A stretch of 64,000 nt of DNA, from assembly GCA_035999765.1 (NCBI GenBank), contig CP108521.1, positions 5,084,001-5,148,000 of the forward strand. Reading direction: 5' to 3'. The DNA comes from Streptomyces sp. NBC_01231. Lineage in GTDB: Bacteria; Actinomycetota; Actinomycetes; Streptomycetales; Streptomycetaceae. The position numbers were made by a program, and so were the translations under genes. The first letter of the stretch is position 1. Each line of letters opens with the position of its first letter. Positions 9,351 through 35,778 of this stretch are shown piece after piece. The notes below the pieces were generated by a model, which saw only the letters and a program-made list of their open reading frames with translations, was not told the origin of the DNA and made no database searches.

Positions 9351-9420
9351 ACCCAGTACACCCGGAAGGGGTGCCCCGTGACAGGAGCACCCCTTCTGAC
9401 CTGCAAAGCGTCTGACTGCG

Positions 9421-9507
9421 CGGTGGGTGTGGGATTTGAACCCACGGTGACATCGCTGCCACGACGGTTTTCAAGACCGTTCCCTTAGGCCGCTCGGGCA
9501 ACCCACC
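9421..9507 (-). tRNA. tRNA-Ser (anticodon UGA)
   Basis: Class II tRNA of 87 bases on the minus strand. The acceptor stem GGTGGGT pairs with ACCCACC, followed by discriminator G and no encoded CCA. The D arm has CCCGAGCGGCC. The anticodon loop CTTGAAA reads UGA, and a long variable arm is followed by a T arm with GGTTCAAATCC. Its 5' half (9468-9507) is the integration target of the element and is duplicated at 35709-35748. Confidence 0.95.
9468..9507. repeat. Left attachment repeat (inside tRNA-Ser)
   Basis: The 40 bases from the anticodon loop to the 5' end of tRNA-Ser are identical to 35709-35748. Homology stops at 9467 and 9508. This copy completes the functional tRNA. Confidence 0.93.
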
Positions 9508-9969: not shown

Positions 9970-10503
9970 ATGCGTGGACTTATCCTGACGGGCCCTTTGG
10001 GCGTTGGAAAGACCACAGCTCAGCGAATCCTGATAGAGCAATATGACTTCTGGAGCCCAAGTGAAGCAACAACACGAAAAGCAGAAGAAAGAGAAAGCCA
10101 TTTGACTACCCATTCACTAGATACCTTCACCGCCCTCGTGAAGGCTCGCAAGCTTGCCTTCCCCATGGAATTTGCAGGCAACTGGTATGCGTGGCACTCG
10201 GAAGACCTTACTCGAATGATGAACGAACCCGGCAAAGCTGTCGTAAACGTCAGACCTTACACTGCGCTAGCAATGTCCGCGATACTCCCAGACATGCTGC
10301 CGGTTTGGCTCTGGTTGCCCGATGAAGAACTGATGCGACGTCGTTTGAGTCGCACGGATCAACGCGACAGAGACGAAAGTATGAGGATGCGGCGCGAAGT
10401 AAGAGACGCAGAGGATGCCGGGTACGAGCGGATGTTTGACCGCCGATACCAAGCCCAACCCGATCTCATCAAGAACCTTCTCGATTTGGCGAATAGCGAG
10501 TAA
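9970..10503 (+). CDS. Guanylate-kinase-like P-loop nucleotide kinase
   Basis: 177-residue P-loop protein. Walker A GPLGVGKTT is at residues 8-16. ATTRKAEERESH, then AFPMEFAGNWYAW, follow the order of the NMP-binding part of guanylate kinases (ATTRxxR...E...G.YY). VWLWLPDEELMRRRLSRT resembles the lid region with its arginines. It is therefore probably a (d)NMP or modified-nucleotide kinase rather than housekeeping Gmk, which is better conserved. First gene of a tight AT-richer operon; the next ATG comes three bases after its stop. Confidence 0.7.
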   Translation: MRGLILTGPLGVGKTTAQRILIEQYDFWSPSEATTRKAEERESHLTTHSLDTFTALVKARKLAFPMEFAGNWYAWHSEDLTRMMNEPGKAVVNVRPYTALAMSAILPDMLPVWLWLPDEELMRRRLSRTDQRDRDESMRMRREVRDAEDAGYERMFDRRYQAQPDLIKNLLDLANSE

Positions 10504-10506
10504 GCG

Positions 10507-11862
10507 ATGAAAGCCAGTGGGACATGTAAGCAAGCATGGGATTCCGCAGTAGACGAGCAAGATCTAGACATCTGGATCGAGCATCTTGATCGCGTAGATG
10601 TAAGCGATCACTTCTCATTTTTGCTGGCACGCGATGCCCTTCGAATAGGCTTCAATGAAGCCGATTTCCCGACCTGGATCCAACACGTAAACTCGCTTGA
10701 TGATCTGTCCCTATTCGAAGCTCTGCGAGATCCCACTACGGACGTTCAGTCTCGCTTGGCAGTGGTCACATATGACCGCTGGATCAATTCCATCCGACGC
10801 ATATTGACAGATCCTCCCGTAAATGGACTTCCACAACAAGGAGTAGTTCAATATTTTTCGGATGGCCTGGAATTCAACGTCCTTCTTGGCTTTCGTCGTA
10901 CGGGAACGACGGTGGAAATTCGAGGGCTTCTCGCGATACCGAATCCCACAGCTTACGCTGACCCAATTCTCGCTCTTCGCTATGCGCGGAACACCGGGCA
11001 GCTTGAACTCTTGCGTAGATCCTTGTACAGCAGACACAAGGTACTGATACAGAGGAATACGCTACTCCACGTGGACCGAGAAGCTTCGGGTGATGTGTTC
11101 GGTCCTACCATAGACACGCTGCTGTTGAATGACTGGATGTTCGACGAGCGATATCTTCCACAAAGAACACAGGCAAATAGCTACTTGTTCGAAGAAACGC
11201 TAACAGCTGCCGCAACAACCGAAAGTCTAAAGCATGGCACTTCACTTCTTGAGATAGGTTGCGGTAATGGTCTATTGACCGCCACTTTTGCTCGAAACGA
11301 AGCGCGGATCAGTCGGATTGCAGCAATTGATATTTCCATGGCAGCTGTGGGCACTACGTACAGAAACGCCGCTCTTCAACGTCACTTGCATCGCGGGGTA
11401 ATTGGGGACCGGGGCAGGTTCATAGCAGCTCAATACGATATTAGCGCCGTTCCCCACACCAACGATGTGGTTCTTTGTAACCCACCTTATGTTCCGCTCC
11501 CCGAGGATAAGAAGATCGTTTCGCAACTCCATCCTATGGCCAAAGCTACATTGGGCACAGATCTTCTTTGCCAGGTGGTGAGGGATGCACCCACGCTAGT
11601 TGACTCACACGGCCACCTCGCCATCGTTATGAGTGAATTGGCTTTGCCTGAACTCGAGCATTCTATTCCCACCGGCTGGAGTGTGGAGAAACAGAGAAGC
11701 ATGCGAGTTCCCTTCCGACTAGAGACCGCAAGTGAGACATACGCCCCAGAGTACGTTGATTGGCTGGTAAAGAATCGCGGACTGACGCTCTCAGGCACCT
11801 CCCAAAGTCCAGCGTATGAGCACGATATTTCCATCCTTCTGATCAAGCCGCTCAGCGATTAG
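10507..11862 (+). CDS. SAM-dependent methyltransferase with NPPY motif
   Basis: 451-residue protein with an unassigned N-terminal 200 residues and a Rossmann methyltransferase domain. Motif I is LLEIGCGNGLLT (about 247-258) and motif IV is CNPPYVPLP (about 324-332). NPPY is the catalytic motif of enzymes that methylate amino nitrogens (adenine N6, glutamine, as in PrmC/HemK). The spacing of motif I before motif IV is as in PrmC-type and gamma-class enzymes. No DNA-recognition domain is recognisable, so a small-molecule, nucleotide or protein target is possible. Second gene of the operon; its stop overlaps an AGGAGG that serves the next gene. Confidence 0.75.
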   Translation: MKASGTCKQAWDSAVDEQDLDIWIEHLDRVDVSDHFSFLLARDALRIGFNEADFPTWIQHVNSLDDLSLFEALRDPTTDVQSRLAVVTYDRWINSIRRILTDPPVNGLPQQGVVQYFSDGLEFNVLLGFRRTGTTVEIRGLLAIPNPTAYADPILALRYARNTGQLELLRRSLYSRHKVLIQRNTLLHVDREASGDVFGPTIDTLLLNDWMFDERYLPQRTQANSYLFEETLTAAATTESLKHGTSLLEIGCGNGLLTATFARNEARISRIAAIDISMAAVGTTYRNAALQRHLHRGVIGDRGRFIAAQYDISAVPHTNDVVLCNPPYVPLPEDKKIVSQLHPMAKATLGTDLLCQVVRDAPTLVDSHGHLAIVMSELALPELEHSIPTGWSVEKQRSMRVPFRLETASETYAPEYVDWLVKNRGLTLSGTSQSPAYEHDISILLIKPLSD

Positions 11863-11872
11863 GAGGCTGCTC

Positions 11873-12364
11873 ATGTCTTCCCATGACCCTATGCTCGTCT
11901 TGCGGTTTCGCGACATTGGAGTGGCCCCTGGCGGGACCATAAAAAAGCATAGAAGAGTAATCTCTGAACACGAATATTGTTGGTGGGGCTGGCTCTACAG
12001 GGAGTATGAGAAAAACCCCCACGTGCGCCTAGGCCAGTTGATCGCTCACCCCATGACCATAGGCCTGTATGACACCGGGCAGGGGAAGGTTTATAGGGCC
12101 AACTGCATTGAACTCTATGCGGCCGCTCGACCTATCAGTTCGCCCGAGCTGGATTTGACACCGGGCTACTACACGGGTCAGCTTGCGCCGGCTTGGTTTA
12201 AGTTGTCCTCTATCGAGGATGCCGATGAAGATCTAGTTGTTGGTCGTGTCTGTACCGAACTGCCTTCGGCCTCCGCTGGCTGCTTTACGGATCTGGAAGG
12301 AAAACGCGTATCGGCGCTCCCGGACTTGCGACGCCAAGACGTCACCTTGTGGGTACTCTCATGA
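11873..12364 (+). CDS. Unknown protein with conserved-looking aromatic motifs (CWWGW, LTPGYY, PAWF)
   Basis: 163-residue protein that I cannot assign. It begins MLVLRFRDIGVAPGGTI, then EHEYCWWGWLYREY, and ends RRQDVTLWVLS. In between it has LDLTPGYYTG and QLAPAWFKLSSIED. The clustered Trp/Tyr motifs and beta-rich pattern suggest a compact ligand-binding or sensor domain. No signal peptide or membrane segment is seen. AGGAGG overlapping the previous stop is its ribosome site, and its own TGA overlaps the next ATG (ATGA), so it is translated together with the methyltransferase and the HAD hydrolase. Confidence 0.7.
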   Translation: MSSHDPMLVLRFRDIGVAPGGTIKKHRRVISEHEYCWWGWLYREYEKNPHVRLGQLIAHPMTIGLYDTGQGKVYRANCIELYAAARPISSPELDLTPGYYTGQLAPAWFKLSSIEDADEDLVVGRVCTELPSASAGCFTDLEGKRVSALPDLRRQDVTLWVLS

Positions 12365-13281
12365 CTACGGAATGCCTCTTCTTGGATCTTGATAACACTC
12401 TCTATGATTGGCTCGACTATTTCGCTCCCGCCTTTAGAGGGCTGTGTCTCCGAATAAGCGAAATGTCGGGAGTGAAAGTTAATAGTTTGTACGAGGACTT
12501 TCGCGAAGTATTCGCCGAGCATGGCACTGTCGAATATAGCTTCGCCGTTCAGGAAGTCGCCAGTCTTCGAATTTTGCATCCCGGCTGGCGTGGATCTGAC
12601 ATTGTCAACTACTACCGACCAGCATTGGATGTATTTCAACACCGGCGGCGAAATCTCCTAAGACTGTACGGCGGCGTAAGGGAAGGTATCCAATCCCTTC
12701 GCGGACTTGGGATCCGGTGCGTGGCAGTCACCGATGCCCATAGATTCCAGGCAGCGAACAGGCTCAGACAGTTGAAGCTAGATAACTTGCTGTCCGGCTT
12801 GGCATGTCGGCCGGACCATAGGAATGTGTCAGAGGCAGAGATCGCGCGCATTAGAAGATTTCCGGCCGACCGGTATTCGTCGCGAATTTCAGAGTTTGTT
12901 TTCCCATCGCATCTTCGTAAGCCAGACCCTCGCATTCTGCTGTGGCTGATGGAACAACTGTCTTTGCGACCGAATCAATGTGCCTACGTAGGGGATAGTT
13001 TAAGGAACGATATTAAAATGGCTCAGTCCGCAGGCGTCCGAGACTGTTGGGCGGCATACGGGGCGCGATATGCTCCGATGAATATGGCGACACTTACACG
13101 TATCACCCACTGGGACAGTGTCAGCGTTCAAGCTGCACTTCAGCCTGCGCATTTGGGAATCACGCCAACATGTGTGGCTAGATCATTTCAAGATGTAGTG
13201 AGATTCGCTGCCCTCCGAGTCAACTCCCCTTCAAGCACTTCCGTCTCGCGGGTTTCGACTCTGCTTGAGCAAGGACTGTGA
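12361..13281 (+). CDS. HAD-superfamily hydrolase
   Basis: 306-residue phosphatase-type protein with all four HAD motifs: I FLDLDNTLYDW (Asp nucleophile at residue 9 and Asp11), II VAVTDAH, III HLRKPDPRILL (Lys) and IV YVGDSLRNDIKMA. It has a helical cap between motifs I and II, and about 65 extra C-terminal residues. The ATG at 12361 overlaps the upstream stop (ATGA); a GTG at 12349 is possible. A TTA leucine codon (13000-13002) sits inside motif IV, so in Streptomyces translation would need the bldA tRNA. The substrate is unknown; the kinase and methyltransferase partners suggest a nucleotide-like phosphate. Confidence 0.8.
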   Translation: MTTECLFLDLDNTLYDWLDYFAPAFRGLCLRISEMSGVKVNSLYEDFREVFAEHGTVEYSFAVQEVASLRILHPGWRGSDIVNYYRPALDVFQHRRRNLLRLYGGVREGIQSLRGLGIRCVAVTDAHRFQAANRLRQLKLDNLLSGLACRPDHRNVSEAEIARIRRFPADRYSSRISEFVFPSHLRKPDPRILLWLMEQLSLRPNQCAYVGDSLRNDIKMAQSAGVRDCWAAYGARYAPMNMATLTRITHWDSVSVQAALQPAHLGITPTCVARSFQDVVRFAALRVNSPSSTSVSRVSTLLEQGL

Positions 13282-13652: not shown

Positions 13653-16600
13653 CTACTGATCGACCGCTGCTTCGTAGAAGGCATCCGCGAGGGCGACGAT
13701 GATCGAGTTGATAGCCGGCCCGTCGGTGAAGAAGTAGTCAGCCATCGTGTTGTGGGCGTCCTGGTTGTCCGCGACGGCCTCCGTAACGGCTGCTTGGAAG
13801 TCTTGCGACTCCACGAACTGCTTCCTTGAGTTCACCTTGGCCTGCTTGATCAGGTTCGGGTCGGCGAGCAACCGTAGGACGAGTCCCTGCACGAACTCCC
13901 GGACCTGGGACTCGGCGAACGATTCGGCGCCGAAAAGGTCGTTCATCTTGTCTATGACGACCTGGAGCGCGACGTACTTCGGATCCTTCTTCACTCCCGT
14001 GCCAGCTGCGCTGATGCCCTTCAGTTGCCCGTCACCCACGAGTGAGATGTCGACCGGGATTGCCTTGTTGTGCTTGACCCCAACCAGCACCACGTCTGAG
14101 AGGTCCACGTCGGCCGCCCAAGCGGACTCGGCGATGACCTTCTCCAGCAGGCGCAGGAAGATCGAGAGCATCTCCATGTAAGGGTCGCCGTAGTCGACGA
14201 TCTGGGACATAAAGTCATAGAGACGTACGTAGGTGGAGACATCCTTGCGGAATAGGTCGAGCGCGTTGAGAGCGACCGTGTCCTCTTCCTCGATCGCCCG
14301 CGCGTAGCGGCGCCGGAAGTCGTGCTGTGCCGGGCTGATCGCCGCCGAGAGTGCGTTGTTGCCCTTCCGGGTCACCCACAGCTCGGCGACCTTGCGAACG
14401 TCGTCCTCGGTGTAGATTCCGGCGTGGGCAAGCTTGTTAGCCAGGTGGACGACGACGTACGGATCGGTCTCGGTTTCCAGGGTCGCGTTCTTGAAGTACG
14501 GCTCGAAGGCTGCCTTGATGTCCTCGGGCTTGTTGGCGAAGTCGATGACGAACGTCTTGCGTTTCTGCTCCCCACCAGCGGTGCGATGGGTGCGGTTGAG
14601 CCGCGAGAGCGTCTGCACCGCGGTGACCCCTGACAGCTTCTTGTCTATGTACATCGCCGAGAGTAAGGGCTGGTCGAAGCCGGTCTGGAACTTGTTGGCG
14701 ACCAGCATGATCTTGTACGTCTCGCCCTTGAATGCGGCTGCCAGGTCAGCCCCGGCGCCGGGGTTCATGTTGGCCTCGGTGAACTCGTCGTCCTTCGACG
14801 GCTGCGGGCCCCAGTCGCTGTGCCAGGTCTCGTCCTCGGCCATCGTCACCCCGGCGGAGAAGGCGACCAGGGTGCGGTAGTTGTACGAGGCGTCCTCGGT
14901 GCGGCGCCTGGCGATGTAGGCGTCGATGGCCACCTTGTACTTCACCGCGGACTTGCGCGAGTCGGTCACCACCATCGCCTTCGCCTTGCCTTCAAGGAGG
15001 TAGGCAACGTTGGCGTGGAAGTGCTCGACGATGATCCGCACCTTCTGGCTGATATTCGTCGGGTGGAGCTGCACCCACCGCATCAGGCCCTTGCGGGCGG
15101 CGGCCTCCTCAACCTCTCCACCGTCACCGCTCTCGGCCCTGCCGGCGATCTTCAACGCGGTGTCGTAGGACTGATAGCCCTTGAGCACGTCGAGGATGTA
15201 GCCCTCCTCGATCGCCTGCTTCATCGAGTACAGGTGAAACTCGCGCGGCTTCCCATCGGCATCCTTGCGGCCGAACAGTTCGAGGGTCTTGTTCTTCGGC
15301 GTCGCGGTGAAGGCGAAGTAGGAGATGTTCTCCGACTCGGCCCGCTCGGTCATCTCCGAGGCCAGTACCGACTCCACATCGAGCTCGCCGCCCTCCTCTA
15401 TCTCCTTGACCTCCTCCGCCGTCAGCACCTGCTTCAGCTTCGAGGAGATCTGACCCGACTGGGAGGAGTGCGCCTCATCGGCGATGACGGCGAACCGCTT
15501 GCCTTTCAGGCCGGCATCGGTCCGGATCTCGTCCAGCGCATGCGGGAAGGTCTGCACCGTCACCGCGATGATGAGCTCACCGTTCTTCAATGCCTGTGCC
15601 AGCAGACCCGACTTCGACTTCGCGCCGGCCTTGCGGACGTCCTCGGGGCTGATAGTTGCGACGATCTTGCCCGTGCCGTCGATCTGCCGGATCGCATCCT
15701 GCAGCTGAGAGTCGAGCACGGTACGGTCCACGACCACGATGACCGAGTCGAAGACCTTCCGATCATCGACATGCAGCCGCGCCAGCCTGTGGGCCGTCCA
15801 GGCGATGGTGTTCGTCTTCCCCGACCCGGCCGAGTGCTCAATCAGGTACCGCTGCCCAACACCCTCCTCCTTCACCGCCTCAACGATGCTCGTGACGGCC
15901 TCCCACTGGTGGAACCGCGGGAAGAGCATGCTCGTACGCCGCACCGGCGTGCCGGTAGTGACGTCCCACTCTTCCTTGGTCTGCACGATCATCAGCCGCC
16001 CGATGATGTTCAGCCAGGCGTGTTTCTCCCAGACGCGTTCCCACAGGTACGCCGTCGACGACCGTCCGTCCGCGCCGGGCGGGTTGCCAGCACCGCTGTC
16101 AAAGCCGATGTTGAACGGCAGGAAGTGGGTCTTCTCCCCCTCCAGCCTGGTGGTCATCGCCGCGCGGTCGTTCGAGACCGCAAAGTGGACCAGAGCACGG
16201 TGTCCGAAGGACAGCAGCGGCTCGCGCCGCCCCTTAGTCAGTGGGTTGCGGTCCTGCTTGTACTGGTTGATCGCCTCATCCAGCGACTGGGTGAAATCGG
16301 TCTTCAACTCCACCGTGGCCACCGGAAGACCGTTGACGAAGAACACCAGATCGAGGATGCGCTGGTCGGCGGTCGAGAAGTGCACCTGCCGCACCACCCG
16401 CAACCGCATCGCCTCGTAGTGCGCCGTCGTGGTCTCGTTAAGCGACGTCTCCGGACGGAACTGCGCCATCTTCAACCGACCACCGCCGATGTACTGCACC
16501 CCGTTACGCAGGATGTTCAGCGTCCCACCGCCATGTTCCTGCGGCCGGTCGAGCGCCGAGGTCAGCACGTCGAGGAACTTCGCCTGCGACCCTGCCGCCT

Positions 16601-16784
16601 TCAACGCCTTCTCGTACGCCGGCCTCTGCGTCTTCTCCAGCCACGCGAACAGATCAGCGGGGAACAGCGCCCGCTCCTGATCGTACTCACCACCGTCACG
16701 GTCGTTCTTCGAGTACAGCCAGCCGTGATCCCGCAGGTATTCGCAGATCTCCGTCTCGAATACCACCTCGTTGTGGTCAGCCAT
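13653..16784 (-). CDS. hsdR: Type I restriction enzyme, R (motor/nuclease) subunit HsdR
   Basis: 1043-residue subunit that cuts DNA after ATP-driven translocation. The nuclease PD-(D/E)XK-type motif is LDLVFFVNGLPVATVELK (about residues 145-162, D..ELK). Walker A EHSAGSGKTN is at about 318-327, and DEAH in FAVIADEAHSSQSG at about 437-440. Later helicase motifs include FAFTATPK and QTGFDQPLLSAMYIDKKL. Last gene of the hsdM-hsdS-hsdR operon. The ATG at 16784 overlaps the hsdS stop (TGATG); a GTG three bases upstream is also possible. Length and motifs look intact, so it is likely functional. Confidence 0.95.
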   Translation of the reverse strand: MADHNEVVFETEICEYLRDHGWLYSKNDRDGGEYDQERALFPADLFAWLEKTQRPAYEKALKAAGSQAKFLDVLTSALDRPQEHGGGTLNILRNGVQYIGGGRLKMAQFRPETSLNETTTAHYEAMRLRVVRQVHFSTADQRILDLVFFVNGLPVATVELKTDFTQSLDEAINQYKQDRNPLTKGRREPLLSFGHRALVHFAVSNDRAAMTTRLEGEKTHFLPFNIGFDSGAGNPPGADGRSSTAYLWERVWEKHAWLNIIGRLMIVQTKEEWDVTTGTPVRRTSMLFPRFHQWEAVTSIVEAVKEEGVGQRYLIEHSAGSGKTNTIAWTAHRLARLHVDDRKVFDSVIVVVDRTVLDSQLQDAIRQIDGTGKIVATISPEDVRKAGAKSKSGLLAQALKNGELIIAVTVQTFPHALDEIRTDAGLKGKRFAVIADEAHSSQSGQISSKLKQVLTAEEVKEIEEGGELDVESVLASEMTERAESENISYFAFTATPKNKTLELFGRKDADGKPREFHLYSMKQAIEEGYILDVLKGYQSYDTALKIAGRAESGDGGEVEEAAARKGLMRWVQLHPTNISQKVRIIVEHFHANVAYLLEGKAKAMVVTDSRKSAVKYKVAIDAYIARRRTEDASYNYRTLVAFSAGVTMAEDETWHSDWGPQPSKDDEFTEANMNPGAGADLAAAFKGETYKIMLVANKFQTGFDQPLLSAMYIDKKLSGVTAVQTLSRLNRTHRTAGGEQKRKTFVIDFANKPEDIKAAFEPYFKNATLETETDPYVVVHLANKLAHAGIYTEDDVRKVAELWVTRKGNNALSAAISPAQHDFRRRYARAIEEEDTVALNALDLFRKDVSTYVRLYDFMSQIVDYGDPYMEMLSIFLRLLEKVIAESAWAADVDLSDVVLVGVKHNKAIPVDISLVGDGQLKGISAAGTGVKKDPKYVALQVVIDKMNDLFGAESFAESQVREFVQGLVLRLLADPNLIKQAKVNSRKQFVESQDFQAAVTEAVADNQDAHNTMADYFFTDGPAINSIIVALADAFYEAAVDQ

Positions 16785-17998
16785 CACGCCACCTCGCGTA
16801 CGTCGATCTGCCCCGTCACCGCCGCCGTGATCAGCGCCGACCGCCGCTCCCTGGAGAGCTCGATGAACCGCTCGGCCTCGGCGATGAGCGTGTCGATCTT
16901 TGCGGTCTGCTCATCCAAATACGCAGCGATCCGCCGCTGTTCATGGATCGCCGGGAGCGGGATGGGTGTCCGGGCCAAGGTGCCGAGGTTCAGCCGGCGG
17001 AACGTCGCGCCCATGATCTGGTAGTCCCAATACTCAGCCGTCTGCCGTGACAGTAGCGCCCACACGATAAATCTCGTGTCGACCAGATCCGGCCGCAGTG
17101 CAACTCGCACCGTATCTTGCGTCAGATTCGCACCAGCCAAGTCGTCCGACACGACGGCCACCTTCCCGTACGCCGGACCGATCGAAACGACCACGTCGCC
17201 ACCCTCGAGAACTGACCGCTTGTACGCGCCCGCGATCTCAGGTGCTGTCGTTCGCAGGGCACCCCTATTCGGGGATACGCCTTCGCCAAGGATGTCCGAC
17301 GGTCCGATGTAAACAACCCCACCGTCGACCGGCTCACCACACTGCAGAATGCCGTAGGTCATCGGCCGATCATGATCGACCAGTCGGCGCAACTGGGTCT
17401 GCTCGTAGCCGTCCAATGCCTCAGCGACTGTCGCCACGCGACGATCGCGGAGCATCTCGATCAGCCGCTGCTGCTCCCCGATGAGCGTGTCGATGTGTGC
17501 CGTCTCGCGGTCCAGGTAGTTCGCGATGACGCGCTGTTCTTCGGGCGGCGGCAATGCGACGGGGAGCGCGCGGATCGCCGACACGTTGATGCGACGGAAC
17601 GTGGAGCCGATCATCGCTGACTCGACAGCGTAGTTCGCTTCTGCCCCCACCAGTGCGTACCGCAGGAACGTCGGATCGACCTCCGAAGTCCTTCGAAGAA
17701 GGACCGTTTCCTGGCCAACAGCGAACTCGGGGGTACCTGGGGCCACAGCTGATACCAGGCCCACTGACACGTTACGGATGAACAACAAGTCACCGGTACG
17801 CGGCGCGCGGTCGGACGCGCGCAGGTGATCAAAGAATTCCTGGGTCGTGTATTTGCAATGAGACAGGTCGACATACGCGCCCTGGCACTCTCGGATACTC
17901 GCGACCGGAAATCGGCGGTCATCGTCAACGAACGGGGCAGTGACATGGGCACAATCAATGACATCAACGAGCCGCCTGAGCGGAACAGTCGTCGTCAT
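16784..17998 (-). CDS. hsdS: Type I restriction-modification specificity subunit HsdS
   Basis: 404-residue protein that chooses the target sequence for both methylation and cutting. It has two target-recognition domains, each followed by a conserved helical spacer: EEQRVIANYLDRETAHIDTL at about 150-170 and HEQRRIAAYLDEQTAKIDTL near the C-terminus. The two spacers are clearly repeats of each other, as expected for HsdS. Its ATG overlaps the hsdM stop by four bases. The recognition sequence cannot be read from the protein. Confidence 0.93.
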   Translation of the reverse strand: MTTTVPLRRLVDVIDCAHVTAPFVDDDRRFPVASIRECQGAYVDLSHCKYTTQEFFDHLRASDRAPRTGDLLFIRNVSVGLVSAVAPGTPEFAVGQETVLLRRTSEVDPTFLRYALVGAEANYAVESAMIGSTFRRINVSAIRALPVALPPPEEQRVIANYLDRETAHIDTLIGEQQRLIEMLRDRRVATVAEALDGYEQTQLRRLVDHDRPMTYGILQCGEPVDGGVVYIGPSDILGEGVSPNRGALRTTAPEIAGAYKRSVLEGGDVVVSIGPAYGKVAVVSDDLAGANLTQDTVRVALRPDLVDTRFIVWALLSRQTAEYWDYQIMGATFRRLNLGTLARTPIPLPAIHEQRRIAAYLDEQTAKIDTLIAEAERFIELSRERRSALITAAVTGQIDVREVA

Positions 17999-19752
17999 CC
18001 TTCGACCTCCCGCAACAGGTCGAGGATCTTGGCGACCTGCTTCTCCAGGTCGGCGTCGATCTCGGCGAGCGGACGGGGCGGAACGTACTTGTAGAAGTGG
18101 CGGGTGAAGGGGACCTCGTAGCCGATTTTGGTCTTGGCCCAGTCGATCCAGGCGTCAGGAACGTGCGGCTTCACCTCCGTGTCGAAGTACATCTGGATGA
18201 CTTCGCGCTCCCCTGCCGCGCCGGCGGTTGAGCCGCCGTAGGTGAAGGGCACGTTTTCGGTGTCACGCTTTTTCGAGTCGGGCTTCGGGTTGCTCTTGCG
18301 GTCGACGACAGGGTTCCCGTCCTCATCGAGCAGGGGACGCTCGACGGTGATGGTCCAGTAGCCGAACTCGTCGTTGCGCAGCACCTTGGAGAGGTCGGGG
18401 TCGGCGTCCTCGAAGTCGGCGTACAGCCGCACGACCTCAGCGCGGTCATCGTCGCTGATCTCGCGTCCCTTGGACCCGAGGTTCTTGCGCATCTTGGTCC
18501 AGAACAACGTGCCGTCGATGAGCTGGACCTTGCCCTGGCGGTCGGCGTGCTTGGTGTTGTCGAGGATCCAGATGTAGGTGGCGATGCCGGTGTTGAAGAA
18601 CATGTTGGTCGGCAGCGCGACGATCGCCTCGACGAGGTCGTTCTCCAGCAGCCACCTGCGGATGCTGGAGGGGCCGGATTCGGCGGCGCCGGTGAAGAGC
18701 GGCGAGCCGTTCATGACGATGCCGACGCGGCCGCCGCCGTCCTCGGGTGCGCGCATCTTGTGGGCCAAGTGGAGCAGGAAGAGCATCTGGCCGTCCGAGG
18801 TCGCGGGGAGTCCCGGCGCGAAGCGGCCGTAGGGGCCGGCGGAGTCGCGCTCCTCCTTGACCGCCTTGGCGTACTGCTTCCAGTCCACCCCGTAGGGCGG
18901 GTTGGACATGCAATAGTCGAACTGGCGGCCCCTGAAGGCGTCGTCGGTGAGCGTGTTGCCGAAGGCGATGTTGGTCGCGTCGTGGCCCTTGGCGAGCAGC
19001 TCGGACTTGCAGATGGCGTACGACTGCGGGTTGTACTCCTGGCCGTACAGGCTCAGCTTCGCCTCGGAGTTCTGGGCGAGCAGGTGCTCCTCTGCCAGGG
19101 AGAGCATGCCGCCGGTGCCGGCGGTAGGGTCATACAGCGACCGGATGATGCCGCCCTCAGTGAGGTCGACGTCCTTCTCCGCGAAGAGCAGGTCGACCAG
19201 CAGCCGGATCGCGTCGCGCGGCGTGTAGTGGTCTCCGGAGGTCTCATTCGCGGCCTCATTGAACTTGCGGATGATGTACTCGAAGGCGTCGCCCATGTCG
19301 GAGTTCGACACCACATCGGGGTGGAGATCGACGGCGCCGAAGGACTTGACGATCTCGCGCAGGAGCCCGGCCTTCTCCAGGGCCAGGACCTCCTTCTTGA
19401 AGTCGAAATACTCGAACACGTCCACGTCGGCGGAGAACCGGTCGATGTAGTCAGCGAGGTTGTCCGCCAGCCCGTCCGCATCGGCCAGCAGGTTCGCGAA
19501 CTCGTAGTTGGAGGTGTTGTAGAACGTCCGCCCCGTGGCCTTCTTGACCTCGACCTTGAGCCGGTTCGGGTTCTCGTGCTTCGCAGCCAGCTCCCGTACC
19601 GCCGCACGGTCCGGCTCGAGTACGCAGTCGAGCCGTCTCAGGATCGTGAACGGGAGGATCACTGACCCGTACTGGTTGGGGCGATAGGGACCCCGAAGCT
19701 GGTCAGCGATTGACCAGATGAAGCTACCGAGCGTGCTCACAAGGTTCCTCAC
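17995..19752 (-). CDS. hsdM: Type I DNA methyltransferase subunit HsdM
   Basis: 585-residue adenine-N6 methyltransferase subunit. The N-terminal helical domain includes YGSVILPFTILRRLDCVL. SAM-binding motif I is DPTAGTGGML (about 208-217) and the catalytic motif is SNPPYGVDW (about 283-291). Length and order match HsdM. First gene of the hsd operon, downstream on the same strand of the ESCO-like acetyltransferase gene after a 146-base gap, so the two could share a transcript or hsdM may have its own promoter in that gap. Confidence 0.95.
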   Translation of the reverse strand: MRNLVSTLGSFIWSIADQLRGPYRPNQYGSVILPFTILRRLDCVLEPDRAAVRELAAKHENPNRLKVEVKKATGRTFYNTSNYEFANLLADADGLADNLADYIDRFSADVDVFEYFDFKKEVLALEKAGLLREIVKSFGAVDLHPDVVSNSDMGDAFEYIIRKFNEAANETSGDHYTPRDAIRLLVDLLFAEKDVDLTEGGIIRSLYDPTAGTGGMLSLAEEHLLAQNSEAKLSLYGQEYNPQSYAICKSELLAKGHDATNIAFGNTLTDDAFRGRQFDYCMSNPPYGVDWKQYAKAVKEERDSAGPYGRFAPGLPATSDGQMLFLLHLAHKMRAPEDGGGRVGIVMNGSPLFTGAAESGPSSIRRWLLENDLVEAIVALPTNMFFNTGIATYIWILDNTKHADRQGKVQLIDGTLFWTKMRKNLGSKGREISDDDRAEVVRLYADFEDADPDLSKVLRNDEFGYWTITVERPLLDEDGNPVVDRKSNPKPDSKKRDTENVPFTYGGSTAGAAGEREVIQMYFDTEVKPHVPDAWIDWAKTKIGYEVPFTRHFYKYVPPRPLAEIDADLEKQVAKILDLLREVEG

Positions 19753-19898: not shown

Positions 19899-21206
19899 TC
19901 AGCTGACCCAGATGCCGTCGGGTGAGACTCGGCGAGCAAGGCTCCGGCCCGCAGCGCTCACGGGAGTCGACCAGGACACATCCGCAACCTTGCATCCAAA
20001 GTCGGTGGCGAGTGCCTGCACGAGCGTAGCGCCGATGCCGCGGTGCCGGTAAGCCTCTGCTACCCAAATGAGGATAATTCGGGGGCGCAGGGTGGCATCC
20101 TGTGCCTCGTACTCGGAACCGTCGGTCAAGTCCCAACGATGGTGCTCGTTAGTATCGTGAGCTGCCACGTAGCCGACGATGCGCGCGTCCACTTTCAGTA
20201 GATACGCTCGATAGTTGTCCGAAGTCGCCTCGGGCTCACCTATGTGGGACCACGACGGAAAGTCGTAGTTGTCCTCCCTCTGTGGCATGCGCGCCACCTG
20301 ATAGGCCAACTTCCGCCACGAAATAGGTGACTGTGTGGTGACCACTACCAGTTCACCCCACCAGTCAAGGCTTTTCGGTACGCGAACGCCTAGTGCCCAA
20401 TTCACATGATGGACGCGGTGGACGTTGTCGTCATCTTCCGTATCTTGAAGACGCATACCGCACGGGCACTTGCCGCCATTGCCACTCTCTGTTTCCAACT
20501 CTTGGAATTGGACTGGGACCGCACCGCGGCTCAGATCCTCGTCACTGCCTCCCACCCAAGGTCGGAAGGGTGCATCCTCCGATTCGATGTAACCGGTCCA
20601 GCGGTCCACCCACCCCGGATACTGTTCGGGGAACATCTCCCGGATCTGCTTCTGAGCCGCGGGCAGTGTGGGGCGAACCCACACACTGCCAGCCGTCGCC
20701 CGACCATTGAGGCGCAAACCGCAATTAGTGGCCTTGGCGCGCAGAAAATTCAGGAACACCCCGGGGGGTGAGTCGAAGTCCACTCCACGGATCAGCTCTC
20801 GCTCACCGGGGTCCAGCCACTCATCAATGGGTAACGCGAGCCGATCGGCGAGTACGTGCAGTCCGCTGTAGTCGTGTTCGATCTCAGCTGCGCGCAACGC
20901 TTCGACTGTAGCCTCGACGTCTCGAAAACGAGCGCACAAATCGATCCAGCGAGGACCGCGCCCAAAGTAGAAGGAGCCCCGGTAGCCGTCATACCGAATG
21001 CAGTCCATTGCCGCATCGCGCGCCTTGTCGACTGCCTCTAGGTAGTCCGCGGGTAGATCTGGTTCATCGCCCCGCGCGGACTCGGCGTCGACGTAACTAT
21101 CTCGGTCGAGCTGGATGGTGGCGAACCAGCGCGAGGCCCGGACTCGGACCTTCCTGGTGTCTCGGCTGCTCGGATCAGGGACAAGGTGGATAGTCCGCTC
21201 GGTCAT
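19899..21206 (-). CDS. GNAT acetyltransferase with C2H2-like finger, resembling ESCO/Eco1 cohesin acetyltransferases
   Basis: 435-residue protein. The first 220 residues are unassigned. A finger-like segment KCPCGMRLQDTEDD plus NVHRVHH (Cys247, Cys249, His263, His266/267) recalls the CGMxY...H..HH finger of ESCO1/2. A GNAT domain follows: RAYLLKVDARIVGYVAA, then IWVAEAYRHRGIGATLVQAL with the acetyl-CoA loop at about 388-397, and an end ADVSWSTPVSAAGRSLARR that parallels the IAFSDPTPDGKxFA end of ESCO enzymes. The order of all these segments matches ESCO proteins. The Cys spacing is CxC rather than CxxC, so the finger may be altered. The gene precedes the hsd operon on the same strand. The protein target is unknown. 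Confidence 0.7.
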   Translation of the reverse strand: MTERTIHLVPDPSSRDTRKVRVRASRWFATIQLDRDSYVDAESARGDEPDLPADYLEAVDKARDAAMDCIRYDGYRGSFYFGRGPRWIDLCARFRDVEATVEALRAAEIEHDYSGLHVLADRLALPIDEWLDPGERELIRGVDFDSPPGVFLNFLRAKATNCGLRLNGRATAGSVWVRPTLPAAQKQIREMFPEQYPGWVDRWTGYIESEDAPFRPWVGGSDEDLSRGAVPVQFQELETESGNGGKCPCGMRLQDTEDDDNVHRVHHVNWALGVRVPKSLDWWGELVVVTTQSPISWRKLAYQVARMPQREDNYDFPSWSHIGEPEATSDNYRAYLLKVDARIVGYVAAHDTNEHHRWDLTDGSEYEAQDATLRPRIILIWVAEAYRHRGIGATLVQALATDFGCKVADVSWSTPVSAAGRSLARRVSPDGIWVS

Positions 21207-27958: not shown

Positions 27959-29365
27959 ATGTCTGTGCAGGAGGTGTTCGGCCTGGCCCCGCTCGTCGCG
28001 CTGCTCGGCGTCGCCGTGTTCGCCGTGTGGGCGGTGGTGTGGGTGGTCCGCTACGTGCGCGCCGATGCCATGACCCGGCAGTCCATCCGGCAGGCCGTGC
28101 GCGTGCGGCGGGGCTGGAAGCGGCTCGCGCCGATGCTGAAGCTGTCGGCCACGGACAAGACGCCCACCCCGATGGCGTCGCTGGCGAACACGGACGGCAA
28201 GCCCGTCAGGCCCCGCGTCCTGATCCCGGCCCTGAAGGTCACGCATGACGCGTACGGGGTGATCGCGCGGGCGACCTGCCTGCCCGGCGTGGGACTGGAG
28301 CAGTTCCAGAAGGCGGCCCTGCACCTGGCCGACGCCTGGCGGTGCACGCGGGTCGCGGTCACCCAGGACAAGCCCGGAGAGGTGGTCATCCGTGGTGTCC
28401 GGCTCGATCCGCTGAAGTTCACCACCGAGCACCATCCCACGGGTGAGGTGCCGGGGGAGACCGCCCGGTGGGACCTGGGCTTGGACGAGTACGCCCAGCC
28501 GGTGTCCGTCGACCTTACGCAGGTGCCCGGCGTGACTGTGGCCGGCCTTCCCGGCTTCGGCAAGACCTCGCTCATCAACCGGCTGATCTGCGACTGGGCG
28601 CCCTCGCCCGCGATTCAGTTCGTGTGCGCCGACGGCAAGGTGTCCACCGCCAGGGAGGGCGACTATGCCCATCTCGTGAAGCGGATGTTCGCCTTCGTCG
28701 GGGACGACCTCGAAGAGGCCAACGCCCTGTTCCGGCGGCTGGTGGAGCTGCGCCGCGCCCGTGTCTCGGCCGCGGAACGCATCCTCGGGGTGCAGAGCAT
28801 GTGGGAGGCCGGGCCGTCCGCAGTGTGGCCGCTCGTCGTCGTGATCATCGACGAGGCGCACACCTACTTCCGGGACCACAAGGGCAGCGACCCGAAGACG
28901 AAGAAGCTCGCCGCACTCGCCGCCGAGAACGCCCGGCTGGTTGAGGATCTGGTGAAGAAGGGCCGCAGCATGGGCATCCTCGTCATCCTCGCCACCCAGA
29001 AGTCCACCGGTGACGCCATCCCGACGTTCATCCGCGACGTGTGCCCCATCGGCCTGTCCTTCGCGCAGAAGACCGCCGAAGCTGCCGTCGCCGCGCTGGG
29101 GGAGGACATCCGGGAGTGGCCGGACGCCAACCCCATCAACCTCCAGGACCGTGCCTACGTCGGCGTCGCCTCCATGAACCACCAGTCACAGCCCGGATTC
29201 ACCCGCATCCGCACGCCCTTCGTGTCCGGCAGGGACTCCGCCCACATCGCCGCCCGTACCGCCCACCTCACCGCCGACCCGGCCGACCTGCTCACCGCCG
29301 AACTCCCCGGCGTCGAACTCAGGAAGTCCAGCCCGGACAACACCACCCCGCCTATGGCGGCCTGA
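27959..29365 (+). CDS. FtsK/SpoIIIE-type conjugative DNA translocase (TraB/TraSA-like)
   Basis: 468-residue ATPase that moves double-stranded DNA between mycelial cells, the only protein strictly needed for transfer of these elements. A membrane helix spans residues 9-31. Walker A is GLPGFGKTS (about 196-204) and Walker B is LVVVIIDEAH (about 292-301). DLVKKGRSMGILVILATQK follows the FtsK pattern. The ATG follows the previous stop directly. No broken motif is seen. Confidence 0.9.
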   Translation: MSVQEVFGLAPLVALLGVAVFAVWAVVWVVRYVRADAMTRQSIRQAVRVRRGWKRLAPMLKLSATDKTPTPMASLANTDGKPVRPRVLIPALKVTHDAYGVIARATCLPGVGLEQFQKAALHLADAWRCTRVAVTQDKPGEVVIRGVRLDPLKFTTEHHPTGEVPGETARWDLGLDEYAQPVSVDLTQVPGVTVAGLPGFGKTSLINRLICDWAPSPAIQFVCADGKVSTAREGDYAHLVKRMFAFVGDDLEEANALFRRLVELRRARVSAAERILGVQSMWEAGPSAVWPLVVVIIDEAHTYFRDHKGSDPKTKKLAALAAENARLVEDLVKKGRSMGILVILATQKSTGDAIPTFIRDVCPIGLSFAQKTAEAAVAALGEDIREWPDANPINLQDRAYVGVASMNHQSQPGFTRIRTPFVSGRDSAHIAARTAHLTADPADLLTAELPGVELRKSSPDNTTPPMAA

Positions 29366-30299: not shown

Positions 30300-31784
30300 A
30301 TGCGCCACCCCCTCGATCTGCGCCACGTCATCAGCCCCGGCCTGCGGGACCTGATCGAACTGGCCAACACCCACGACTTCGACCGCGTCACCGAACAGGT
30401 CCGCGATCTGCGCGGCTGCACCAACCCCGTCAACCTGCACGGCTGGACGGTCACCACTGACCAGAACACCAAGGAAGTGGTCCGCTCCTACCGCTCCGAA
30501 GACGAGCCCTCCGGACGCCTGCTGACCGCCTGCGGCAACCGCCGCTCCTCCCGATGCCCAGCCTGCTCCCGCGTATACGCCGCCGACACCTACCACCTCA
30601 TCAAGGCCGGACTGTCCGGCGGCAAGGACGTCGCCGAAACCGTCCGCGACCACCCCCGCGCCTTTGTCACCCTCACCGCCCCCTCCTTCGGCCCCGTCCA
30701 TAACCGCCCCACCACCGACGCGGGCAAGCCCCAGCCCTGTGCCTGCCGTCAGACCCACGCCGAAGATGCGCCGGAACTCAGCACCCCGCTGAACCCGGCC
30801 ACGTACGACTACACGGGCGCCGTGCTGTGGAACGCGCACGCCGGTCAGCTGTGGGCACGCTTCACCACCTACCTTCGCCGCGCCCTGGCCGAACACCTCG
30901 GCATGACGCAGAAGGCGCTGAACGCCGCTCTGCGTGTCTCCTTCGCGAAGGTCGCCGAGTACCAAAAGCGCGGCCTGGTCCACTTCCACGCCGTAATCCG
31001 CTTCGACGGACCCGAGGGCCACACCACCGAGCCCCCGCCCTGGGCCACCTTCGACGCCCTGAGCGCCGCCGTGGGCCTGGCGGTCGAGCGTGCCCAACTC
31101 ACCATCGCCTCCGACGCCATCGGCGAACGCGTCATCGCCTGGGGCCGCCGGTTCAGGGTCGACCCCATCACCGCCCTGGGCAACGGCGAACTCACCGACG
31201 CCCGCGTTGCCGAGTACACAGACGCCAAGGTCGCCGGATACATCGCCAAGTACGCCACCAAGAACGCCGAAGGCACCGGCACCGTGGACCGCACCTTGAT
31301 GTGTCGCCCCTGCGCCGGACGCGGCTACGTGCGCGATCCCGCCCGCCTCCCCGCCCGGTGCACCGACTGCCACGGCACCGGACAGACCGAACCCATCAGG
31401 GCCCTGCCCATTCAGCAGCACGTCCGCCAGATGATCCGTACGGCCTGGGCCCTCGGCCATCTCCCAGAGTTCGCCGAACTCAAGCTCTGGAAGTGGGCCC
31501 ACATGCTCGGCTTCCGCGGCCACTTCTCCACCAAGTCCCGCGCCTACTCCACAACCCTCGGCGCACTCCGCGACGTACGCCGTGCCTGGCGCCTCGCCCA
31601 GGCCGAAGCCACCCGCGCCCGCGCCGGCCTCCCCACCACCGACGCGACCACCCTCGTCACCGCCTCCTCGTGGACCTACCTCAGCACCGGCTACCGCCCC
31701 GGCGAAGAACTGCTCGCCGCCCAGGTCCGCCACGACATCGCCCACACCCAACGCCTCAAGTCCGAAGGAGACCCCTGGCTGTGA
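30300..31784 (+). CDS. Rolling-circle replication initiator (RepSA-like, HUH type)
   Basis: 494-residue initiator that nicks the element's origin. The HUH motif is in GLVHFHAVIR (about 225-234). The catalytic tyrosine region is VAGYIAKYATK (about 311-321). A Cys pair RCPAC lies near residue 87, and a DnaJ-like zinc segment (CRPCAGRG ... CTDCHGTG) near 334-360. These match Rep of pSAM2-class elements. Its stop overlaps the GTG of xis. Confidence 0.88.
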   Translation: MRHPLDLRHVISPGLRDLIELANTHDFDRVTEQVRDLRGCTNPVNLHGWTVTTDQNTKEVVRSYRSEDEPSGRLLTACGNRRSSRCPACSRVYAADTYHLIKAGLSGGKDVAETVRDHPRAFVTLTAPSFGPVHNRPTTDAGKPQPCACRQTHAEDAPELSTPLNPATYDYTGAVLWNAHAGQLWARFTTYLRRALAEHLGMTQKALNAALRVSFAKVAEYQKRGLVHFHAVIRFDGPEGHTTEPPPWATFDALSAAVGLAVERAQLTIASDAIGERVIAWGRRFRVDPITALGNGELTDARVAEYTDAKVAGYIAKYATKNAEGTGTVDRTLMCRPCAGRGYVRDPARLPARCTDCHGTGQTEPIRALPIQQHVRQMIRTAWALGHLPEFAELKLWKWAHMLGFRGHFSTKSRAYSTTLGALRDVRRAWRLAQAEATRARAGLPTTDATTLVTASSWTYLSTGYRPGEELLAAQVRHDIAHTQRLKSEGDPWL

Positions 31785-31987
31785 CCACTGCGACCAAGGC
31801 CAACAGGCAGACGCTGAAGCTGGAGGAGGCTCTCGCCGAGATCGGGGTGTCCCGTGCAGCCTTCTACCGCATGCGCGCTCGGGGCCAGGCCCCCAGGCAC
31901 CTGAAGCTCCCCAACGGTCAGATCCGCATACGCCGGGCCGACCTCGACGCCTGGTTCGACTCCTGCGAGGTGCAGGAAGCGTGCTGA
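31781..31987 (+). CDS. xis: Excisionase (Xis), helix-turn-helix
   Basis: 68-residue DNA-binding protein of the MerR/excisionase type: LEEALAEIGVSRAAFYRMRA then PNGQIRIRRADLDAWFD. It directs the integrase toward excision. The GTG overlaps the rep stop (GTGA) with GAAGGAGA upstream, and its end overlaps the integrase start by seven bases. This rep-xis-int order is typical of AICEs. Confidence 0.85.
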   Translation: MTTATKANRQTLKLEEALAEIGVSRAAFYRMRARGQAPRHLKLPNGQIRIRRADLDAWFDSCEVQEAC

Positions 31988-33375
31988 CCTACGACGTACA
32001 GATCTGGGGCATCCGCAAGCGGCCCAACCGTGTGGCGGCCTATCAGCTCCGCTGGCGGGTCGGTCCCCGGCCCTTCTCCAAGAGCTACAAGATCAAGGCC
32101 CAGGCCGACGGTCGGCGCTCGGAGTTGCTCGCCGCTCTGCGTAACCGCGAGCAGTTCGACACGGAAACCGGCCTGCCTGCCTCGGAAGTGCAAGCGCTCA
32201 ACTCCACCACCTGGTACGCCCACACGCGCGCCTATGCGGAGATGAAGTGGCCCGGCGCTTCGGCCAAGCACCGCGCGAGCATCGCTGACACGCTGGCCAC
32301 CATCACGCCGAAGCTGGTCAAGGACAACCGTGGGGCTCCGGCTCCGAAGGTCCTCCGCATCGCCCTCTACTCGTGGGTCTACCGCTTCGTCCTCGGCGAC
32401 GACAGGACACTGAAGCCCCGTATCGACGTGGAGGAGCCGCCCGCCGACATCGTGTCGGCGCTGGACTGGATCAGCCGGAAGTCCGTCGACATCACCGCAC
32501 TCAACACGCCCTCGATGGTGCGTACGGCACTCGACGCCCTGAAGCTGAAGCAAGACGGCACGGCCGCTGCCGAGAACACGGTGAATCGCAAGCGGACAGT
32601 CTTCAGCAACTGCCTCCGATACGCGGTGGAACGGGAGTTGCTGGCGACCCTGCCCCTCGACAAGGTCGACTGGACCCAGCCCGAAACTGACGACGAGATC
32701 GACTTCCGGTTCGTACCCGGCCCGAAGCTGGCGAAGGCGCTGATCGACGCTGTAGGCGAGCAGGGGGAACGCGGACGGCACCTCATGGCGTTCTTCGGCT
32801 GCCTCTACTACGCGGCCAACCGCCCTGGGGAGGCGGCCAATCTCCGGGAAGACGACTTCACCTTGCCTGAAGAGGGCTGGGGGGAAGTACTGCTGTCGAC
32901 TAGCACACCCCGCGTCGGCTCCGGGTGGACCGACTCGGGCGAGTCGTTCGATACGCGCGGCCTGAAGAAGCGTGCCCGCAAGGCGACCCGGCCTGTACCG
33001 ATTCCCCCCGTCCTCGTGCGCCTGGTCCGCGAGCACATCAAGGAATTCGGCACCGCTGAAGACGGCCGGCTGTTCCGTGCGGCCCAGGGCGGCGGCCTGC
33101 TGTCCAAGGAGTACGGGGAGGCTTGGAAGGCGGCTCGACACGTGGTGCTGACCGATTCCGAGGCTGCCTCACCGTTGGCTGACGTGCCGTACTCCCTGCG
33201 CCACGCGGGCGTATCGCTCTGGCTTGAGTCCGGCGTCTCCCCGGCAGAAGTCGCCCGTCGCGCAGGCCACAGCATCGCGGTGCTGTTCCGCTTCTACGCC
33301 AAGGCGATTCACCGCAACCAGCAGCGCTCGAACGAACAAATCGAGCGAGCCTTGGAGGCCGCTGAGGAGGACTAG
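31981..33375 (+). CDS. int: Tyrosine site-specific recombinase (integrase)
   Basis: 464-residue integrase that recombines the element with the tRNA-Ser site. The N-terminal arm-binding part has YQLRWRVGPRPFSKSYK. The catalytic domain has the first Arg in CLYYAANRPGEAANLREDD, the second box in DVPYSLRHAGVSLWLESG, then RAGHSIAVLFRFYAK with the His and the tyrosine nucleophile. The GTG start inside the xis stop region has the usual coupling. It ends 2.3 kb from the right attachment repeat; integrases usually sit closer, and the intervening part looks decayed or acquired. Confidence 0.92.
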   Translation: MLTYDVQIWGIRKRPNRVAAYQLRWRVGPRPFSKSYKIKAQADGRRSELLAALRNREQFDTETGLPASEVQALNSTTWYAHTRAYAEMKWPGASAKHRASIADTLATITPKLVKDNRGAPAPKVLRIALYSWVYRFVLGDDRTLKPRIDVEEPPADIVSALDWISRKSVDITALNTPSMVRTALDALKLKQDGTAAAENTVNRKRTVFSNCLRYAVERELLATLPLDKVDWTQPETDDEIDFRFVPGPKLAKALIDAVGEQGERGRHLMAFFGCLYYAANRPGEAANLREDDFTLPEEGWGEVLLSTSTPRVGSGWTDSGESFDTRGLKKRARKATRPVPIPPVLVRLVREHIKEFGTAEDGRLFRAAQGGGLLSKEYGEAWKAARHVVLTDSEAASPLADVPYSLRHAGVSLWLESGVSPAEVARRAGHSIAVLFRFYAKAIHRNQQRSNEQIERALEAAEED

Positions 33376-35430: not shown

Positions 35431-35708
35431 GAGCGACGATTCGCGGGTCCCGGCGTCTCAGCGACGGTCCACGCCTCGGATCAGAGGGGGCCGCTGACCA
35501 GCAGGTTCGCGGATCCATTTCGGCGAACTCTGGTCCACGCCTGGTCCACACGCACTGATCCACAACGCGACTGGGCCGGATCAAGGTGAGACAGGCCCCG
35601 CGCAGAAGTGGCGCCCCTCACCGAGGGACACCCCATCTGACCAGCACGTCTTTGACCTGCGGAGGCGGTGCGATCCGCACCCACAGGAACGCTGTCACGC
35701 TCTCGCGT

Positions 35709-35748
35709 TTTTCAAGACCGTTCCCTTAGGCCGCTCGGGCAACCCACC
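35709..35748. repeat. Right attachment repeat
   Basis: The 40 bases are identical to 9468-9507. They hold only the 5' half of tRNA-Ser, so no complete tRNA is present here. The last two bases are also the first two of the HtrA-gene terminator hairpin. Confidence 0.93.
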
Positions 35749-35778
35749 CCGCGTCGCCGACTGATCGGCGACGCGGGG
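35747..35778 (-). terminator. Terminator of the HtrA-type protease gene
   Basis: CCCCGCGTCGCCGA and TCGGCGACGCGGGG form a perfect 14-bp stem with a CTGA loop, 34 bases past the protease stop. It adjoins the attachment repeat exactly. Confidence 0.8.

What the first reader, a model, noticed from the sequence alone, without database searches (positions are those of the whole stretch)
9970..13281. AT-richer four-gene operon of unknown function: kinase, NPPY methyltransferase, CWWGW protein, HAD hydrolase
Four coupled genes (gap of 3, gap of 10 with shared ribosome site, ATGA overlap) with about half G+C where I counted, against a much richer surrounding. All predicted activities handle phosphate or methyl groups on nucleotide-like substrates. 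The set sits as cargo beside a restriction system in a mobile element. I know no described system with this combination; it could be a defence module using a modified nucleotide or a small biosynthetic set.
Basis: partly seen in the sequence, partly recalled or inferred. Interest (0 to 1): 0.78.

Follow-up and report, generated by a model that had tools for sequence, protein, structure and literature searches.

The report
DS-9-related four-gene candidate immune operon
A mobile element in an actinomycete-like bacterium carries four tightly packed genes, seen in the same order in a distant bacterium, two of which belong to the protein families of a proven anti-phage system, so this is probably an undescribed relative of that system that acts on nucleotides.

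Summary
Four coupled genes (kinase, NPPY methyltransferase, CWWGW protein, HAD phosphatase) at 9970-13281 have 52.4% G+C against 67.9% for the window. They are the first cargo of a pSAM2-type integrative element in tRNA-Ser, bounded by a 40-bp direct repeat, next to a convergent type I restriction system. They are no chance neighbours: a Pirellulaceae genome has the same four genes in the same order, 42-50% identical, and 23 metagenome contig lengths recur between the methyltransferase and CWWGW lists (about 0.2 expected).

Half of the set has known kin. The CWWGW protein is the Pua-like N-terminal domain of DS-9A, and the HAD is of the DS-9B / "Hydrolase-TM" family; DS-9 is a two-gene anti-phage system proven in E. 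coli. The metallophosphatase that DS-9 needs is absent; instead a guanylate-kinase-fold enzyme with altered base-reading residues and an N6AMT1/HemK2-like methyltransferase stand beside the same core. Two kinase relatives are fused to dCTP-pyrophosphatase-like domains, pointing to nucleotide substrates.

Best reading: a rare, undescribed DS-9-related immune operon acting on nucleotides, the HAD as likely effector. Defence is inferred from kinship and location; no function was tested, and structure prediction could not be run.

The parts
9970..10503 (+). gene 1: guanylate-kinase-fold P-loop kinase with altered base-reading positions (F64, W75, N93, R95)
10507..11862 (+). gene 2: NPPY methyltransferase, C-terminal half near N6AMT1/HemK2, N-terminal ~220 aa without Pfam match
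11873..12364 (+). gene 3: CWWGW protein, Pua-like PF24405, related to the N-terminal domain of DS-9A
12361..13281 (+). gene 4: HAD phosphatase of the PDLC03008 family (DS-9B, Hydrolase-TM)
9468..9507 (.). left 40-bp att repeat, inside tRNA-Ser(tga) 9420-9507 (minus strand)
35709..35748 (.). right 40-bp att repeat, in a copy that ARAGORN does not call a tRNA
13653..19752 (-). type I restriction system hsdR, hsdS, hsdM, convergent with the quartet
30300..31784 (+). RepSA replication initiator of pSAM2 type
   Evidence: 4.3e-147
27959..29365 (+). FtsK/SpoIIIE-like transfer protein
   Evidence: 9.1e-7
31582..33375 (+). ORF whose C-terminal part looks like a tyrosine recombinase by eye; the start is probably further downstream
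   Evidence: sequence, by eye; no Pfam match at 1e-4

Best explanation
The four genes form one anti-phage immune operon, a DS-9-related variant that handles nucleotides. Shown here: the four-gene order in two distant genomes, a Pua-like plus HAD core of the families found in DS-9, conserved catalytic motifs, and carriage on an integrative element. Inferred: (1) defence as the function; (2) the Pua-like protein binds a nucleotide or base through polar and aromatic residues that it shares with DS-9A, as reader or scaffold; (3) the kinase and the HAD act in opposite directions on the same nucleotide, and the methyltransferase N-methylates it or a protein or nucleic-acid partner; (4) in infection the HAD, released or fed by the other three, drains a nucleotide that the phage needs, and phage growth stops. 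In DS-9 a metallophosphatase fused to the Pua-like domain takes the place held here by kinase and methyltransferase. My estimates: the operon is a defence system 0.75; it acts on nucleotides 0.65; HAD as effector rather than brake or detoxifier 0.4. The confidence given is for the DS-9-related, nucleotide-handling defence operon, not for step 4.
For: Pua-like family and DS-9A: 8.3e-30 to PF24405, 3.4e-35 to NF053862, profile comparison 99.7%. HAD family: PDLC03008 2.2e-37, 28% over 286 columns to the HAD behind DS-9A in L008. DS-9 defends E. coli and needs its metallophosphatase (PMC13092281, passages). DS-9-type pairs sit beside Hachiman on plasmids and beside integrases in viral contigs. Same four genes in L003, next to a recombinase-like gene; contig co-occurrence. 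Nucleotide theme: guanylate-kinase fold, dCTP-pyrophosphatase-like domain fused to two kinase relatives, DS-9A-type metallophosphatase nearest Lmo2642 and Rv0805; another immune HAD dephosphorylates dATP, ATP and IMP (PMC12715507, abstract). Element and restriction system.
Against: No phage or growth test. DS-9's essential enzyme is missing here, so function by kinship is indirect. HAD and Pua-like proteins of the quartet are distant from DS-9's (28% for the HAD; separate branches). Only two quartet loci could be read as DNA, so HAD adjacency is 2 of 2 and no more. Of 34 Pua-like contigs of 4 kb or more, 14 have no listed methyltransferase, and a Pua-like subgroup (P0101, P0105, P0111, P0112, P0114) shares no contig length with methyltransferase or kinase. 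Very rare: own genome alone in samples of 391, 394 and 396. Section headings of PMC12715507 say that conserved HAD residues are not essential for toxicity of one immune HAD.
Confidence: 0.6

Rival explanations
1. Antiviral nucleotide maker: methyltransferase and kinase make an N-methylated nucleotide that poisons phage replication, the Pua-like protein carries or senses it, and the HAD removes it to protect the host (logic like prokaryotic viperins; comparison recalled).
For: Kinase fold with changed base-reading positions suits an unusual nucleotide; dCTP-pyrophosphatase-like fusions; kinase, methyltransferase and phosphatase in one operon.
Against: DS-9 and Hydrolase-TM have the same HAD family without such a kinase or methyltransferase, which fits an effector better than a detoxifier. 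N6AMT1/HemK2, the nearest solved enzymes, are described as protein methyltransferases in listings.
Confidence: 0.2
2. Modification-reading restriction: the methyltransferase marks host DNA or RNA (or a release factor) and the Pua-like protein reads the mark, so that unmarked phage nucleic acid or translation is attacked.
For: Pua-like genes stand next to methyltransferase-type genes in three settings: NPPY here, DPPW-type in L005, L010, L011, L012, and hsdM/hsdS in L006.
Against: No nuclease in the quartet; kinase and HAD are small-molecule types; the NPPY and DPPW enzymes are not detectably related (probability 0.5%); DS-9 pairs in L008 and in the viral loci read lack such a neighbour directly upstream.
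Confidence: 0.15
3. Small metabolic or biosynthetic cargo of the element without a defence role.
For: Single enzymes of each kind are common in metabolism (general knowledge).
Against: Pua-like and HAD families lie in a proven defence system and in plasmids, satellites and prophages; sporadic occurrence; restriction system next door.
Confidence: 0.08

Closest known systems
DS-9 (DefensePredictor, PMC13092281; NCBIfam NF053862 DS9_1_antiphage)
   Same: Pua-like domain and a HAD of the same family directly behind; mobile, defence-rich settings
   Different: No metallophosphatase here: gene 3 covers positions 1-161 of 486 only, 121.8 bits against a cut-off of 420; kinase and methyltransferase instead
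PADLOC 'Hydrolase-TM' (PDLC03008 + PDLC03009)
   Same: HAD of the same family, 2.2e-37
   Different: No membrane partner: no PDLC03009 match and no strongly hydrophobic stretch in the four proteins
Guanylate kinase
   Same: P-loop, TTR arginine, colinear NMP region, 8.7e-11
   Different: Positions of yeast Glu69, Ser80 and Asp100 (guanine readers, recalled) are F64, W75, R95; invariant NVRPYTAL-type motif
N6AMT1 / HemK2 methyltransferase
   Same: C-terminal Rossmann domain with NPPY, 8.2e-9
   Different: Extra conserved N-terminal ~220 aa without Pfam match; far below the NCBIfam cut-offs of the HemK-type families listed
Chp, CARF-HAD effectors of type III CRISPR (PMC12715507, abstract)
   Same: HAD phosphatase in phage immunity, acts on nucleotides
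   Different: No CARF domain or transmembrane helices reported by the searches made here

Membership tests
DS-9 | metallophosphatase domain in the first gene, needed for defence | tested here: not met
   gene 3 ends with the Pua-like domain; 121.8 bits against cut-off 420; no match of another of the four proteins to NF053862
DS-9 | N-terminal Pua-like domain of DS-9A (seen in the NCBIfam model, not named in the passages read) | tested here: met
DS-9 | HAD phosphatase directly behind | tested here: met
   ATGA overlap; 28% over 286 columns to the HAD of L008
DS-9 | protection against phage | not testable with these tools
   needs cloning and plaque assays
Hydrolase-TM | HAD of PDLC03008 type | tested here: met
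   2.2e-37
Hydrolase-TM | membrane partner of PDLC03009 type, next door or fused | tested here: not met
   no match in the four proteins; present in 6 of 6 plasmid loci tested of the other kind
Guanylate kinase | score over the family cut-off and guanine-reading residues | tested here: not met
   24.2 bits against 25.2 in Pfam, 37.8 against 160.45 in NCBIfam; substitutions
MADS | mad2 methyltransferase with the other mad genes | tested here: not met
   gene 2 matches mad2 only over 233-331 (1.4e-8); genes 1, 3 and 4 match no mad model
pSAM2-type actinomycete integrative element | RepSA, FtsK-like transfer protein, tRNA att repeat | tested here: met
pSAM2-type actinomycete integrative element | site-specific integrase | tested here: inconclusive
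   tyrosine-recombinase-like C-terminus by eye; no Pfam match at 1e-4 for the ORF as taken

The most novel reading that the evidence does not exclude
An undescribed immune system in which a specialised NMP kinase and a HemK2-like methyltransferase make an N-methylated nucleotide signal or poison that a Pua-like reader recognises and a HAD phosphatase executes or ends. It would be one branch of a modular family (Pua-like reader with exchangeable metallophosphatase, kinase-methyltransferase and HAD parts) that also holds DS-9 and the pairs with a DPPW methyltransferase-like gene.
Probability: 0.25. Interest if true: 0.85.

Novelty: new variant of a known kind. Interest (0 to 1): 0.62.

Why it matters
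DS-9 protects E. coli, yet the targets of both of its enzymes are unknown (PMC13092281, passages). The quartet keeps DS-9's Pua-like and HAD families and has a kinase and a methyltransferase in place of the essential metallophosphatase. That marks the constant core, and the kinase with its dCTP-pyrophosphatase-like fusions gives a short list of nucleotides to test, so an open question about DS-9 and about HAD enzymes in immunity becomes testable.

Tried and rejected
Rejected: plain DS-9 membership (no metallophosphatase); Hydrolase-TM membership (no membrane partner); plain GMP kinase (changed base-reading positions, under the cut-offs); MADS (only the generic methyltransferase part); RNA end-healing by kinase and phosphatase (the kinase aligns with guanylate kinase through the NMP region; no ligase among the four genes); common ancestry of the NPPY and DPPW proteins (probability 0.5%).

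Led nowhere: viral contigs with the Pua alignment, the kinase alignment and the DPPW alignment gave no relative; with the methyltransferase alignment 4 loci matched only over about 43-62 residues of the SAM-binding part and were dropped. Methyltransferase in plasmids: no match. HAD of L003 in phages: no match. Pua-like in 392 genomes of the phylum of L003: that genome and one weak match under the cut-off. L007 is under the cut-off and was not used. Literature: searches returned no paper; some searches listed papers, none of whose titles or abstract starts names the quartet. Structure prediction answered 'the machine is busy' in all 24 attempts, so no fold was predicted and no fold search made; one search was only a wait.

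Limits: contig matching uses the longest contig of each cluster; own genome and 3 Pua-like rows without contig data (P0066, P0099, P0116) were left out; the methyltransferase search scored only the 7999 candidates sharing most words. The Pua tree rows quartet, of which only window and L003 were read as DNA; support there is moderate (quartet 93/93, DS-9 80/81, DPPW rows not together, long branches). In the HAD tree the window row has an odd letter make-up. The viral loci (12; 13) share 11 contigs, 14 different ones in all, several near copies. Of the 18 plasmid records six were opened; of the 20, six others. Two Klebsiella records with the Pua match (CP128707, CP128712) have no HAD match: an IS5-type transposase gene follows the match. 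The DPPW genes are weakly typed: PF10237 over the cut-off in L012, under it in L011, no match in L005, L010 not searched.
Full report
OBSERVATION. Their G+C is 0.524 against 0.679 for the window; 5 of 1214 windows of equal length are as low or lower.

SETTING. The operon begins 462 bases inside an integrative element. A 40-bp perfect direct repeat joins tRNA-Ser(tga) (9468-9507, within the gene at 9420-9507) with 35709-35748. A RepSA of pSAM2 type (4.3e-147), an FtsK-like protein and a GntR regulator lie between. The two flanks joined match straight through in five of the 28 other genomes of the genus searched (G137 83% over query 16-279; G370 and G1502 85-86% from 69 on; G1501 and G1508 75-76%), while the rest match in part, often in the tRNA alone. 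ARAGORN finds the tRNA in the G137 and G370 loci and none at the window's right end. Between quartet and core lie a convergent type I restriction system, a GNAT protein and a NUDIX protein.

CONSERVATION. In the collection of one genome for each of 84,980 species the Pua-like alignment found one locus, L003 of a Pirellulaceae MAG (records of the own genome may be left out there). It has kinase, methyltransferase, Pua-like and HAD genes in the same order and tightly packed, 42%, 45%, 50% and 49% identical. The protein database gave 41 methyltransferases, 75 Pua-like proteins and 20 kinases, own included. With the own genome out, 23 contig lengths are shared by methyltransferase (40) and Pua-like (71), 6 by methyltransferase and kinase (19), 6 by Pua-like and kinase, 4 by all three; jittered controls average 0.20, 0.06 and 0.16. 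Of 34 Pua-like contigs of 4 kb or more, 20 have a listed methyltransferase; L003 is among the 14 misses though it carries one, so this is a lower bound. In sampled genomes the set is very rare: methyltransferase in 1 of 391 (order) and 1 of 394 (class), kinase in 1 of 396 (phylum), each time the own genome.

GENES 3 AND 4 AND DS-9. Gene 3 matches PF24405 Pua-like (8.3e-30) and positions 1-161 of 486 of NCBIfam DS9_1_antiphage (3.4e-35; 121.8 bits, cut-off 420). DS-9 is a two-gene anti-phage system of E. coli, metallophosphatase then HAD; mutating the metallophosphatase abolished defence and the targets of both enzymes are unknown (PMC13092281, passages; 'PUA' does not occur in its main text). 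A Klebsiella plasmid copy (L008, 571.6 bits to the DS-9A model) has a HAD directly behind and Hachiman HamA next. Gene 4 aligns with that HAD over 286 columns at 28%, down to a C-terminal ITHW motif, and both match PADLOC PDLC03008. The same HAD family stands before or is fused to PDLC03009 membrane-type partners in 6 of 6 other plasmid loci tested. In viral contigs 11 of 12 Pua-metallophosphatase genes have the HAD directly behind and the 12th lies at the contig end; of 13 HAD loci 12 have the Pua-metallophosphatase in front and one (L038) a protein with a strongly hydrophobic stretch. Several lie beside integrases, in what look like P4-type satellites (by eye). In a tree of 14 HADs quartet, DS-9 and Hydrolase-TM rows are each one side of a branch (100/100, 100/99, 95/95). 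Against a fixed pair: in two Klebsiella records the HAD is missing and a transposase gene follows the Pua match. So the quartet has DS-9's Pua-like and HAD families but is not DS-9.

GENES 1 AND 2. The kinase's nearest solved relatives are guanylate kinases (8.7e-11). In the alignment the P-loop, the TTR arginine and a tyrosine are kept, but three positions that read guanine in the yeast enzyme (Glu69, Ser80, Asp100; recalled) fall on F64, W75 and R95 (numbers checked). Two relatives, P0131 and P0132, carry a C-terminal MazG-like domain; that of P0132 is nearest a pyrophosphatase (9.4e-17) and dCTP pyrophosphatase 1 (6e-13). The methyltransferase's C-terminal half is nearest N6AMT1/HemK2 (8.2e-9), which listings describe as protein methyltransferases with disputed DNA activity. 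Its N-terminal part has no Pfam match but conserved residues.

A WIDER PATTERN. In four other loci (Rhizobium L011, Loktanella L010, an unverified fecal phage record L012, an unnamed relative of the class L005/L052) the Pua-metallophosphatase is preceded directly by a gene with DPPW, and no HAD, NPPY methyltransferase or kinase of these families was found in the stretches read. L052 also holds a SIR2-type protein like ThsA (7.1e-24) and a DNA methyltransferase (9.2e-63). In G508 a short Pua-like gene lies between hsdM-like and hsdS-like genes. R, D, T, H, the WGW core, E, PxYY and W recur in both Pua-like families, in keeping with one kind of ligand; this is inference.

MECHANISM. Best supported: a nucleotide-handling immune operon related to DS-9. 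The Pua-like protein is reader or scaffold, kinase and HAD act in opposite directions on one nucleotide, and the methyltransferase marks it or a partner. I take the HAD as effector because its family is the one enzyme common to DS-9, Hydrolase-TM and the quartet, and because another immune HAD removes phosphate from dATP, ATP and IMP (PMC12715507, abstract); a section heading of that paper warns that HAD residues are not essential for toxicity there. Rivals are listed with their tests.

VERDICT. Real, conserved, not found in print as a quartet in the searches made, and partly explained: a new variant around the core families of a known anti-phage system. Function, substrate and fold are untested.

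Noticed in passing
L005/L052, L010, L011, L012: Pua-metallophosphatase (DS-9A-like) preceded directly by a DPPW methyltransferase-like gene, without the HAD: a possible second DS-9-related system.
   Followed up: partly
L006:1486-1920 and L053:6526-6960: A short Pua-like gene between hsdM-like and hsdS-like genes of a type I restriction system.
   Followed up: partly
P0131, P0132: Kinase of the quartet family fused to a MazG-like, dCTP-pyrophosphatase-like domain; context not readable here.
   Followed up: partly
L038:4209-5870: HAD of the PDLC03008 family behind a 259-aa protein with a strongly hydrophobic N-terminal part, in a stretch that looks like phage late genes; no PADLOC match for the partner.
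   Followed up: partly
L003:9886-10941 and L011:2642-4270: Adenylosuccinate-synthetase-like genes near the quartet in L003 and near the Pua-metallophosphatase in L011 (there fused to a P-loop kinase-like part).
   Followed up: no
window 35580-35765: Right end of the element holds a diverged tRNA-Ser-like copy beyond the 40-bp repeat (86% to the joined flank query), not called as a tRNA.
   Followed up: partly
window 19899-21206: 435-aa protein with a C-terminal GNAT domain behind the restriction genes; no PADLOC match.
   Followed up: no
L057, L058: Pua-metallophosphatase match on two Klebsiella plasmids followed by an IS5-type transposase gene, HAD absent.
   Followed up: partly
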